From assembly GCA_011389865.1 (NCBI GenBank), contig JAABTL010000024.1:1-40581 (forward strand): a stretch of 40,581 nt of DNA. The letters are read 5' to 3'. The notes beneath the pieces were generated by a model that was not told the origin of the DNA, searched no databases, and saw nothing but the letters and a program-made list of their open reading frames with translations. Each line of letters begins with the position of its first letter. Position 1 is the first letter of the stretch. This document shows, piece after piece, positions 14,568 through 38,355 of the stretch. The position numbers and the translations under genes are program-made. The DNA comes from Trueperaceae bacterium (lineage in GTDB: Bacteria; Deinococcota; Deinococci; Deinococcales; Trueperaceae).

Positions 14568-14607
14568 ACCGTGGAGGGGCCCGCCGATCGGCGGGCCCCT
14601 CCACGGT
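14568..14607. terminator. Perfect 40-base palindromic terminator after the subtilase
   Basis: Twenty-base arms meet with no spacer at GATC (centre 14587/14588). It begins 27 bases after the subtilase stop and lies between convergent genes (subtilase plus, rnj minus), so it can act in both directions. Confidence 0.7.
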
Positions 14608-33565: not shown

Positions 33566-34977
33566 GGCAACTCCTCTCGCTGCGGTTGTGCCGTTCGTGC
33601 CGGGGGTGGCGCCTGAGACGTCCGCAGGGCCGCGACGACGGCCTCGAGGCCGATCCCGCGCGAGCCCTTGACGAGCAGCGTTCCGTGCCGTGGCAGGTCG
33701 TCCACGGCCGCGGCGGCCGCCCGCGCGTCCGCGAAGTGGCGCGCCACGCCGCAGGTCTCCGCGATCGCGGTGGCGGCCGCGCCGACCGTCCACACGAGGT
33801 CCGCGCCGTGCTCGGCGACACGTCGACCGACCTCGCGATGGAGGTCGGCCGACGCGTCGCCGAGCTCGAGCATCGAGCCCATCACCAGCGCGTGCGGCCG
33901 CGGCGCGCGCGCGAGGACCTCGAGTGCGGCCGCCACCGAGGCCGGGTTGGCGTTGTAGGTGTCGTCGAGGACCCGCAGGCCACCGAGCGCGAGCGGGGTG
34001 AGGCGCCCGGCCTCGACGCGGGCGCGCTCGATGCGGTCGGCGGCCACGCGCGCCGGCACCCCGAGGTCGACGGCGACGAGGAGCGCCGCCAGCGCGTTCT
34101 CGGCGAAGGCGCGCCCGGCGCCGGGGAGCGCCAGGTCGACGGCGTCGCCGCCGAGGGTGGTCCGCAGTCGCTCGCCGTCGGCAACGAGGACGTGGCGGCC
34201 GGTGGTGGGCTCGTCAGCGGCCCCGCCGAGGGCGTCGGCGCCGACCACGGCAGGGTCGCCGCCGTCGGCGTCGACCCGGTAGCGGCGCACGCCTGCGCGC
34301 AGGTCCTCCGGCAGCCGCCGCCAGGCGGTCTCGGAGGCATAGCGGCCGGACGTCGCCGCGCGCAGCAGCACGCCCTTCTCGCGGGCGACGCCGGCGAGGT
34401 CGCCGAGTCCCTGCAGGTGTGCGGGGGCGACCAGCGTGAGGATGCCGTGGGTCGGTCGCACCAGCTCGGTGAGGAGCGCCATGTCGCCCCTGCGGTCCAC
34501 GCCGAGTTCGAGGACGAGTGGGCGCCCGCCGTCGCCGGCGAGCCACAGGTCGACGAGCACCGTGGCGAGGGCGTGGGGCGTGTTGAGGTTGCCGGGCGAG
34601 GCGGCGGCGTCGAGGGCGGCGGCGAGCAGCCCCTTGGTGGTCGTCTTGCCGGCGCTCCCGGTGATCCCGACGAGCGGCCCGGAGCGGTCGGCGCGGGCGG
34701 CTCGGCCCAAGGCGAGCAGCGCTGCGCCGGCGTCGTCCACCAGGACGGCACCGGGGTGCGGCCGATCGCTGACGACGAAGGCGGCACCGCGCGCGAGGGC
34801 GTCGTCGGCGAAGCGCACGCCGTGGGTCGCGGCGCCTTGGAGCGCGAAGAAGGCGTCGCCGGGACGTACGCGGTCGCTGTGGAAACGCACGCCGGTCGCC
34901 GGCGTGAACCTCGCGTCCGGGACGTCGAGCAGGTGGGCGCCGAGCGTGCGTTGCAGGGTCGCGAGGTCGAGGGTCAT
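33562..34977 (-). CDS. murF: UDP-MurNAc-tripeptide-D-alanyl-D-alanine ligase MurF
   Basis: A 471-residue Mur ligase adding D-Ala-D-Ala. The N-terminal part has VRFHSDRVRPGDAFFALQG, the ATP loop is GITGSAGKTTTKGLL (Ala where Asn is usual), and the C-terminal part has VLDDTYNANPASVAAAL and LVKGSRGIGLE. Start ATG 34977 follows GGAAGG; an in-frame start 45 bases upstream lacks a ribosome site. In this cluster murF directly follows ftsI, without murE between. Confidence 0.94.
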   Translation of the reverse strand: MTLDLATLQRTLGAHLLDVPDARFTPATGVRFHSDRVRPGDAFFALQGAATHGVRFADDALARGAAFVVSDRPHPGAVLVDDAGAALLALGRAARADRSGPLVGITGSAGKTTTKGLLAAALDAAASPGNLNTPHALATVLVDLWLAGDGGRPLVLELGVDRRGDMALLTELVRPTHGILTLVAPAHLQGLGDLAGVAREKGVLLRAATSGRYASETAWRRLPEDLRAGVRRYRVDADGGDPAVVGADALGGAADEPTTGRHVLVADGERLRTTLGGDAVDLALPGAGRAFAENALAALLVAVDLGVPARVAADRIERARVEAGRLTPLALGGLRVLDDTYNANPASVAAALEVLARAPRPHALVMGSMLELGDASADLHREVGRRVAEHGADLVWTVGAAATAIAETCGVARHFADARAAAAAVDDLPRHGTLLVKGSRGIGLEAVVAALRTSQAPPPARTAQPQREELP

Positions 34978-36507: not shown

Positions 36508-36824
36508 ACCGTCTGCACCTCCAGCCACGGGTTCGGTGGGGTGGGAACGGCGGGTGGGGTGAGGCCCGCCGCGGCCGCCTCGACGTTCGGCGCGTCGGGC
36601 GCGGGCACCATGCCAGCCCGGCGGGCCCAGTTCGTCACGGCCAGGGGCCCGTTGACGCTGGCTGCGGCCGAGCGGGCGGTGGCGAGCGCGACGATCGCCT
36701 GCTCCTTGTCGACGAGCAGGCCCGCTTGGGTGCGGTAGCGCAGTTGTGAGGTGGCGCCCAGGCCGGCGAGCAGCAGCAACGCGGCCACGTAGAGGGCGGC
36801 GGCGTTGCGCGCGAGCGGGCTCAC
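36498..36824 (-). CDS. ftsL: FtsL-like small bitopic division protein
   Basis: A 108-residue protein starting at GTG 36824, overlapping the rsmH stop by four bases (GTGA). One membrane segment (AALYVAALLLLAGLGA, residues 9-24) is followed by a predicted helical stretch (YRTQAGLLVDKEQAIVALATARSAAASV), then a proline-rich C-terminus. Sequence alone does not identify it; size, topology and position between rsmH and ftsI point to FtsL. The coiled-coil part is shorter than usual. Confidence 0.7.
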   Translation of the reverse strand: MSPLARNAAALYVAALLLLAGLGATSQLRYRTQAGLLVDKEQAIVALATARSAAASVNGPLAVTNWARRAGMVPAPDAPNVEAAAAGLTPPAVPTPPNPWLEVQTVWR

Positions 36825-37810
36825 GCGCTGGCCTCGACCTTCTCGGCGGCGCGCAGCTTGGCGCTGCGCGCCCGGGGGTTGGCCTCGACCTCGGCCTCGG
36901 TGGCCTCGAGGGGACGCTTCTGCAGGGGTCGCAGGTCGGCGCGGTCGCGGAACGCACGCTTGACGATGCGGTCCTCCAGCGAGTGGTAGGCGAGCACCAC
37001 CAGCCGTCCGCCGGGTACCAACACCTCGGCGGTGGCGGCCAGCGCCGCCTCCAGTGCGCCGAGCTCGTCGTTGACCACCAGGCGCAGCGCCTGGAAGGTA
37101 CGCCGGGCCGGATGGTCGCGTCGGGGGCCGGGCGGGTAGGCGGCCTGGACGACCTCCTTGAGGCGCGCGGTCGTCACGATGGGCGCCGCGTCGCGGGCGG
37201 CGACGATGGCGCGGGCGATCCGGCGGCTGTGCCGCTCCTCGCCGTAGCGATGCAGCCAGGCCGCGAGCTCCTCGACGCTGGCCTCGCGCACGAGGTCGGC
37301 GGCGCTGGGGCCGCTGGCCGCCATGCGCATGTCGAGCGGGCCGTCGTGGCGGAACGCGAAGCCGCGCTCGCCCTCGTCGAGCTGCATCGAGCTGACGCCG
37401 AGGTCGAGCAGGACGCCCCGCACGTCGTCGAGCCCGGCGTCGTGCACGAGGTGCGCCAGGTCGCGGAAGTTCCCCCCGACGAAGCGGAAGCGCTCGGCCG
37501 GATCGGCGACGCCGGCGCGCCCGAGGTCGGTTCGCAGCGCCTCGACGTGCTCGCTGGAGCGCGGGTCCTGGTCGATGGCCAGGACGCGGGCCCCGCGCGC
37601 GAGCAGCGCGCGTGTGTGCCCGCCCGCCCCGAACGTCGCGTCCACCACCCAGGTGTCGGGCACGATCGCCAACGCCTCGAGACACCGCTCCAACATCACG
37701 GGCACGTGGTGACTCGGCGGGGCGGGATCACGGCGCGAGGCCGTTGACCCCGAAGGCGTCTCAGGCCTCGCACCGTGATCCCGCCCCGCCGCCACCAAGA
37801 CCCGCGTCAT
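36821..37810 (-). CDS. rsmH: 16S rRNA m4C1402 methyltransferase RsmH
   Basis: A 329-residue SAM-dependent methyltransferase. The SAM site is VVDATFGAGGHTRALL near 54 with AIDQDP near 77, followed by LDLGVSSMQLDEGERGFAF near 134 and YHSLEDRIVKRAF near 285. The family core normally begins at the equivalent of HHVPVML, here residue 34. The preceding 33 residues (RDHGARPETPSGSTASRRDPAPPS and neighbours) are extra and encoded largely by a 28-bp inverted repeat. Start ATG 37810 overlaps the mraZ stop (ATGA); a later GTG at the HHV position lacks a ribosome site. Confidence 0.94.
   Translation of the reverse strand: MTRVLVAAGRDHGARPETPSGSTASRRDPAPPSHHVPVMLERCLEALAIVPDTWVVDATFGAGGHTRALLARGARVLAIDQDPRSSEHVEALRTDLGRAGVADPAERFRFVGGNFRDLAHLVHDAGLDDVRGVLLDLGVSSMQLDEGERGFAFRHDGPLDMRMAASGPSAADLVREASVEELAAWLHRYGEERHSRRIARAIVAARDAAPIVTTARLKEVVQAAYPPGPRRDHPARRTFQALRLVVNDELGALEAALAATAEVLVPGGRLVVLAYHSLEDRIVKRAFRDRADLRPLQKRPLEATEAEVEANPRARSAKLRAAEKVEASA
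37715..37791. repeat. 28-bp inverted repeat in the rsmH N-terminal codons
   Basis: The arms 37715-37742 and 37764-37791 are complementary over 28 bases with one mismatch, which becomes a G-U pair in the minus-strand RNA. The loop is 21 bases. The stem contains GGGATCACGG and its partner CCGTGATCCC. It encodes most of the non-conserved RsmH leader, so it may be an inserted palindromic element or a regulatory hairpin just after the mraZ/rsmH junction. Confidence 0.75.
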
Positions 37811-38235
37811 CCGACCAGCTCCCGGAGGAGGTCGGGGGCCGGCGGACTCGATTGGACCTCTTGGAGGTTGGCGAGCCAGCGCTGCTCGTCCCAGATCTCG
37901 AGGCGGTTGGGTGCCCCGGCCACGACCACGTTGCCGGTCGTGGAGGCGAACTGGCGCAGCGTGGGGGGGAGCGTGACGCGGCCGGCCGCGTCGATCTTGG
38001 CCTTGCTCGCGCCGGAGTAGAAGAAGCGCACGAAGTTGCGCGCGTCGGGGTCGGTGAGGGGCAGCTCGGTCAGGCGCTCCTCGATGCGGTGCCAGGCCGA
38101 CATGGGGAACACGTAGAGGCAGCCCTCCATCCCGCGGGTGACGACCATGCCGTCTTCGACGAAGTCGCGGAAGGCCGGTGGGATGACCACACGGCCCTTG
38201 TCGTCCACGGTGTACGGGAATTCACCGAACGGCAA
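37807..38235 (-). CDS. mraZ: Transcriptional regulator MraZ
   Basis: A 142-residue protein with two SpoVT/AbrB-type DNA-binding repeats: FPYTVDDKGRVVIPPAFRDF and SGASKAKIDAAGRVTLPPTLRQF. MraZ represses its own dcw operon by binding direct repeats near the promoter. I start at TTG 38235, which gives the family-like start (L/M)PFGEFPYTVDDKGR with GGAAGG seven bases upstream. An in-frame GTG at 38253 would add six glycine-rich residues. It is the first gene of the dcw cluster. Confidence 0.93.
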   Translation of the reverse strand: MPFGEFPYTVDDKGRVVIPPAFRDFVEDGMVVTRGMEGCLYVFPMSAWHRIEERLTELPLTDPDARNFVRFFYSGASKAKIDAAGRVTLPPTLRQFASTTGNVVVAGAPNRLEIWDEQRWLANLQEVQSSPPAPDLLRELVG

Positions 38236-38355
38236 GGCCCCACCTTCCCCCACCGGCGTTGCGAGGCGCGCCTCCCGGGGGTGGCGTCGTCTTCGCGTCG
38301 GTGGCGTGGGAGCGCGTGTTCATGGGGTCGCGGCGGCCCTTTCCCGAGATGGCCA

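What the first reader, a model, noticed from the sequence alone, without database searches (positions are those of the whole stretch)
37715..37791. 28-bp near-perfect inverted repeat embedded in the rsmH N-terminal codons
The repeat sits just after the mraZ/rsmH stop-start overlap and encodes about 25 residues absent from the RsmH core. Its one mismatch becomes a G-U pair in the transcript, so the RNA stem is intact. It could be an in-frame insertion of a palindromic repeat family, or an attenuator separating mraZ expression from the rest of the cluster.
Basis: partly seen in the sequence, partly recalled or inferred. Interest (0 to 1): 0.6.

Follow-up and report, generated by a model that had tools for sequence, protein, structure and literature searches.

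The report
Stem-swapping hairpin repeat inside rsmH
The hairpin in the first codons of the rsmH gene is one copy of a small, apparently undescribed family of repeated DNA hairpins in an uncultured Trueperaceae genus; these keep their tip but change both arms of their stem together, so that in the nearest sister species most of the mid-stem sequence is different and the pairing is intact.

Summary
Window 37715-37791 holds a 28-bp GC-rich hairpin in the first codons of rsmH (minus strand), between the mraZ/rsmH ATGA overlap and the RsmH domain. The arm occurs nowhere else in the genome, but the apical cap does. A 1.09-Mb hairpin survey and covariance models found about 12 copies at six loci in this genome, and copies in all four other held species of the genus. 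Each has a different 21-27-bp stem and a shared cap (CCTGGAG-ministem-CCAACGG). The rsmH copy is the only coding one seen here. In the sister species (95% identical RsmH) foot and cap are identical, while 9 of 12 mid-stem bases differ on both arms with pairing kept; the encoded residues change instead. At rplQ/deoB all five species carry the hairpin, with different stems and an inverted cap in two. Other sites are empty or hold single-arm relics. No RAYT-type transposase, T-tract, Rfam family or plasmid match was found. Best reading: a dispersed palindromic repeat inserted in frame, with arms kept complementary, probably by template-switch correction plus selection for the fold. An rsmH-specific attenuator is not supported as its origin. 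How it moves, and any function, remain unknown.

The parts
37715..37791 (-). whole hairpin element in rsmH codons (sense strand = minus)
   Evidence: covariance models R1 and R2 hit 37716-37790(-)
37766..37791 (-). 5' arm on the mRNA strand (G-rich foot GGCGGGGCGGG, then variable block, then GG)
37741..37765 (-). conserved cap CCTGAGACGCCTTCGGGGTCAACGG; its first and last two bases extend the stem to 28 bp
   Evidence: identical in G014; shared pattern with other copies
37715..37740 (-). 3' arm on the mRNA strand
37768..37779 (-). mid-stem block of the 5' arm, 9 of 12 bases differ from sister species G014
37726..37738 (-). mid-stem block of the 3' arm, 9 of 13 bases differ from G014, complementary to the changed 5' block
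36821..37810 (-). rsmH; domain begins at residue 33, directly after the hairpin
37807..38253 (-). mraZ, stop overlaps rsmH start (ATGA)

Best explanation
The hairpin is one copy of a dispersed, non-coding palindromic repeat family of this Trueperaceae genus. It landed in frame (about 84 nt, 28 codons) in the first codons of rsmH in the common ancestor of three sister species, and is tolerated because it only lengthens the N-terminus before the RsmH domain. The anatomy is a G-rich foot, a freely varying mid-stem and a conserved cap with an asymmetric internal loop and a ministem. SHOWN: the family, the shared cap, covariation of the arms, a block-wise change of both arms between sister species, inversion of the cap at one orthologous site, and presence/absence at others. 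INFERRED: that the arms are kept complementary by templated correction inside the hairpin (template switching, as in quasi-palindrome mutagenesis) together with selection for the fold; that the cap is the part recognised by whatever spreads the element; and that the element is mainly selfish, with at most secondary effects on rsmH expression.
For: Family: the top hairpins in 1.09 Mb of own genome share length (about 76 nt) and cap but not stem sequence. A covariance model finds copies at C16 (rsmH), C22, C11, C13, C7 and C41 of this genome and in all four other species of the genus. Covariation over 11 members: 97% of cells paired, 25 of 34 pairs with double-sided changes, 69 such cells against 17.7 in shuffles (0/500), slid controls 9-17. 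Stem change: own and G014 have identical foot and cap, but 9 of 12 mid-stem bases differ on both arms with pairing kept, while the surrounding DNA differs by 6.8%. G015, an independent assembly, carries the G014-type 5' arm. Cap inversion at rplQ/deoB in G013 and G016 relative to own, G014 and G015, with a similar foot. Multiple simultaneous compensatory changes and loop inversion are the footprints predicted for template switching (PMC8794818). Turnover: rsmH copy absent in G013/G016; first C7 copy absent in G014; C41 copy cleanly absent in G014, with a 3'-arm relic in G015; C11 copies absent in G013/G016. Mismatches are rarely wobble (3 G-T of 12, 387 of 399 stem pairs Watson-Crick), which leans towards DNA-level homogenisation over RNA-only selection.
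Against: No mobilising enzyme was identified: Y1 transposases (RAYT type) are absent from all five genomes. No clear target-site duplication was seen, and several absences look like deletions, so transposition itself is inferred. Copy number is low (about 12). One stem (C13/G013 C134) is nearly conserved across the genus, so stem turnover is uneven. All genomes of the genus are drafts in tens to hundreds of contigs, and this species rests on one assembly. The donor of the changed block was not found.
Confidence: 0.72

Rival explanations
1. A cis-acting RNA attenuator or translational brake between mraZ and rsmH: the mRNA hairpin 19 nt after the rsmH start slows ribosomes or polymerase and lowers expression of rsmH and the genes after it relative to mraZ.
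For: Very stable predicted RNA stem; pairing kept between sister species; the rsmH mismatches are all G-U on the mRNA strand in both species.
Against: The same element occurs in unrelated contexts, including a divergent promoter region and a site upstream of a promoter-like sequence; no T-tract; relatives lack it; mismatches in other copies are mostly non-wobble.
Confidence: 0.12
2. A protein- or RNA-binding site family: the cap is a conserved ligand for a host protein (as DNA hairpin or RNA), kept at certain loci such as rplQ/deoB for a host function (mRNA ends, chromosome structure).
For: Cap conserved across non-homologous loci while stems vary; the rplQ/deoB site is occupied in all five species.
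Against: Most sites differ in occupancy between close species; no shared genomic context; no Rfam family reaches its gathering score in the loci tested.
Confidence: 0.1
3. Classical REP/BIME or REPIN element moved by a RAYT transposase.
For: Short palindromes, several in facing inverted pairs (C11, C13, C7, C41), mostly intergenic.
Against: No Y1 transposase in five genomes; no GTAG or CGTC tag at the foot; stems of 21-27 bp against mostly 6-13 bp in described REPs (PMC3733652); low copy number.
Confidence: 0.04
4. Assembly artefact or chance palindrome.
For: Single draft assembly for this species; contigs in relatives often end at the hairpins.
Against: Independent assemblies share the cap and covarying arms; z = -9; the family recurs at orthologous loci.
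Confidence: 0.02

Closest known systems
Rickettsia palindromic elements (RPE)
   Same: palindromic repeat inserted in frame in protein-coding genes, tolerated by the protein (as cited in PMC6649704 and PMC3733652)
   Different: here one coding copy among about 12, conserved cap with variable stem; different phylum; homology to RPE families not tested
REP/BIME and REPIN repeats with RAYT transposases
   Same: small, mostly intergenic palindromes, often in inverted pairs
   Different: no RAYT in the genus, no GTAG/CGTC tag, stems two to four times longer, few copies, mid-stem not conserved
Repetitive hairpin-forming elements of sponge mitochondria and palindromic repeats of Volvox organelles
   Same: dispersed, putatively selfish hairpins whose fold is maintained
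   Different: in the sponge elements the stems are conserved and the loops vary (PMC2800124); here the reverse; bacterial chromosome. The Volvox comparison rests on an abstract (PMC2670323)
Coding palindromes in Nematomorpha mitochondrial genes
   Same: long inverted repeats inside coding sequence, with template switching proposed to keep the arms complementary (PMC6649704)
   Different: those arms encode conserved parts of the host protein; here a repeat family with a shared cap, in added codons
Template-switch-maintained RNA hairpins
   Same: multiple simultaneous compensatory changes and loop inversion (PMC8794818)
   Different: a mutation mechanism, not a family; here 8 compensatory pairs in one 12-bp block

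Membership tests
REP/RAYT repeats | RAYT (Y1_Tnp, PF01797) transposase in the genome | tested here: not met
   0 of 5 genomes; controls ring; genomes are drafts
REP/RAYT repeats | GTAG or CGTC tag at the foot of the stem | tested here: not met
   feet are GGCGGGG, GCGGGG, GTGGGG, GGTCGTGG and similar
REP/RAYT repeats | high copy number (usually over 100 per genome, abstract of PMC2817692) | tested here: not met
   about 12 copies
Rickettsia palindromic elements | in-frame insertion in a protein gene | tested here: met
   rsmH open through the hairpin in own and G014; relatives lack it
Rickettsia palindromic elements | sequence homology to an RPE family | not tested
   no RPE alignments at hand
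intrinsic terminator / attenuator | T-tract directly after the stem | tested here: not met
   none on either strand at the hairpin
Rfam RNA families | score above a curated threshold | tested here: not met
   no family at gathering threshold in 9 loci that hold other members; in the window only sub-threshold hairpin matches, mostly microRNA families
template-switch-maintained hairpin | several compensatory changes at once with loop unchanged | tested here: met
   own vs G014; that they arose at once is inferred from the low flank divergence
template-switch-maintained hairpin | loop inversion between orthologous copies | tested here: met
   rplQ/deoB site, G013/G016 vs own/G014/G015; independent insertion not fully excluded
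mobile element | occupied versus empty orthologous sites | tested here: met
   rsmH, C7, C11, C41; some absences are probably deletions
mobile element | target-site duplication or identified mobilising enzyme | tested here: inconclusive
   only a 7-bp direct repeat at C41, also explained by deletion; no RAYT

The most novel reading that the evidence does not exclude
A new class of bacterial hairpin element in which only the cap (and partly the foot) is heritable sequence, while the stem is repeatedly rewritten as a block on both arms by templated synthesis. The element would spread by its cap and regenerate its own complementary arms at each site, including inside a gene of the division and cell-wall cluster.
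Probability: 0.12. Interest if true: 0.8.

Novelty: new variant of a known kind. Interest (0 to 1): 0.55.

Why it matters
Small palindromic repeats are usually found by sequence similarity; this family is nearly invisible to that because its stems share little sequence, and contigs in relatives often break at it, so such families may be overlooked. The rsmH copy gives a close species pair in which 8 stem pairs changed in one block while the DNA around differs by about 7%, a natural test case for how long hairpins keep near-perfect pairing. It also shows a strong hairpin tolerated in the first codons of a conserved gene.

Tried and rejected
Arm-sequence search of the genome: unique, does not reveal the family. 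Rfam: only sub-threshold matches in the window, none in other loci. RAYT transposase: absent. Loss of the palindrome-cutting nuclease SbcD as a reason for tolerance: rejected, SbcD is over cut-off in own, G013, G014 and G016. Phage origin: the single viral-contig match to the cap is a chance hit in a protein repeat without a hairpin. Plasmid match: none. Intrinsic terminator: none at the site. Donor of the changed stem block: not found. The idea that one arm is pre-existing host DNA copied at insertion was considered because of single-arm relics in G014 and G015, but the 7-bp direct repeat at C41 and the lack of a clear arm in G013 fit deletion better.

Full report
OBSERVATION. The window belongs to a draft genome of a Trueperaceae bacterium (Deinococcota; the closest named RsmH relatives are Trueperaceae or Deinococci MAGs). 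The inverted repeat lies exactly where described, 37715-37791: 28 pairs, one mismatch that is U-G on the mRNA strand. It folds far better than shuffles (z -9.2). rsmH runs on the minus strand (36821-37810), its ATG overlapping the mraZ stop. The RsmH domain begins at residue 33, directly after the hairpin. The hairpin-encoded residues are an insertion: same-genus species G013 and G016 read MTEVP-HVPVML and VTTPP-HVPVML, and of the 30 rsmH loci of the family scanned only those of own and G014 have a hairpin there; G015, whose contig ends inside the hairpin, is the third carrier.

SISTER SPECIES. In G014 (JAABRV010000052.1; RsmH 95% identical, DNA 93.2% over 3.3 kb) the hairpin is at the same place and of the same length. 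Foot and 25-nt cap are identical, but in the mid-stem 9 of 12 bases differ on the 5' arm, and 9 bases differ on the 3' arm. Eight pairs changed on both sides, and the two single changes give G-U on the mRNA strand. At the flank divergence of 6.8%, 9 of 12 differences would arise with a probability near 7e-9 for one arm alone (own arithmetic, assuming independent sites). The encoded residues change (RDHGAR to RGSGSG; SRRDPA to QTQSSA). So the fold, not the peptide or the stem sequence, is retained. A third species, G015, has the G014-type 5' arm. G014 and G015 are closer to each other (95.5%) than to this genome, so one change between the two lineages suffices.

A FAMILY. The arm occurs once in the genome. 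A structure-based survey of 1.09 Mb of the genome found that the three top hairpins share the rsmH architecture: about 76 nt, a long G-rich stem of individual sequence, and the cap CCTGGAG-[ministem]-CCAACGG. The ministem covaries too (CACC/GGTG, CACG/CGTG, CAGC/GCTG, CGGG/CCCG). A covariance model finds copies in this genome at C16 (rsmH), C22 (between rplQ and a deoB-like phosphopentomutase gene), C11 (four copies, two of them degenerate, between divergent dgt and inositol-monophosphatase-like genes), C13 (a pair), C7 (a pair, between an acyltransferase gene and uvrC) and C41 (a pair, one cut by the contig end). There are copies in all four other species of the genus and one in G009 of another genus. 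The remaining held Deinococcota genomes (111 searched in all) showed no further copies, with the caveat that the first look scores only a capped number of candidates per genome. Gene names other than rsmH and mraZ are read from translated sequence, not from profile searches.

COVARIATION. On 11 members, 97% of cells pair, 25 of 34 pairs change on both sides, and 69 cells carry double changes against 17.7 in shuffles (0/500); partner-slid controls give 9-17. The alignment is fitted to the structure, but the stems are nearly ungapped from the cap outwards, so this bias is small. Over 16 members, 387 of 399 outer-stem pairs are Watson-Crick. Of the 12 mismatches only three are G-T, with A-C, G-G, C-C, T-C and A-A among the rest. 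Selection for RNA pairing alone should enrich wobble pairs among tolerated changes. The small sample leans towards homogenisation or selection at the DNA level.

ORTHOLOGOUS SITES. rplQ/deoB is occupied in all five species, with different mid-stems; the cap lies in one orientation in own, G014 and G015 and inverted in G013 and G016, while the feet of G015 and G016 are alike. Cap inversion by exchange or template switching between inverted arms is the simplest account, though independent insertion is not excluded. Other sites turn over. The first C7 copy is absent in G014, and the second is a 3'-arm relic there. The C41 copy is cleanly absent in G014 between 7-bp repeats, and a 3'-arm relic remains in G015. 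The C11 copies are absent in G013 and G016, and in G015 one lacks its 3' arm. The C13 copy is shared with G013 and has a nearly conserved stem, so turnover is uneven. Four loci carry facing (convergent) pairs.

MECHANISM. Best account: a dispersed palindromic repeat family, one copy of which entered rsmH in frame in the ancestor of three species. The arms are kept complementary by templated correction (template switching; PMC8794818 predicts multi-pair compensation and loop inversion), probably with selection for the fold. Translation must pass through the hairpin, because the domain's conserved histidine follows it directly. Not shown: how copies spread (no Y1 transposase; no clear target duplication), what reads the cap, and whether rsmH expression is altered. 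There is no T-tract, and SbcD is present, so neither intrinsic termination nor absence of this palindrome nuclease explains the element.

KNOWN KINDS. It resembles Rickettsia palindromic elements (in-frame palindromes), REP/BIME repeats (but no RAYT, no tag, longer stems, few copies), organelle hairpin elements (where stems, not loops, are conserved) and Nematomorpha coding palindromes. No description of this family was found in the searched library; that library lacks most subscription papers. Judged a new variant of a known kind.

Noticed in passing
window 14568-14607: Perfect 20-bp palindrome with no loop (ACCGTGGAGGGGCCCGCCGATCGGCGGGCCCCTCCACGGT); it lacks the family cap.
   Followed up: no
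window 33810-33865: Another long imperfect hairpin of the window (loop 6); it lacks the family cap.
   Followed up: no
L174 (G015:C295 end), L256 (G015:C306), L259 (G014:C259), L252 and L257 (G013:C134, C97), L264 (G000:C41): Contigs end within or close to the hairpins, so copies are undercounted and the family may be a common cause of contig breaks in these assemblies.
   Followed up: partly
L195 15315-15707: Four hairpin copies, two of them degenerate, packed in the 390-bp region between two divergent genes; G013 and G016 have only a short spacer there.
   Followed up: partly
L260 1501-1804, L265 470-708, L264 1-257, L195 15325-15680: Four loci carry copies in facing (convergent) pairs about 90-200 bp apart, never divergent, which suggests a composite unit or directional insertion.
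   Followed up: partly
L267 288-357: G009, another genus, has one hairpin with a perfect 24-bp stem and a shortened cap (CTAGGGGCTTTGCCCACG).
   Followed up: partly
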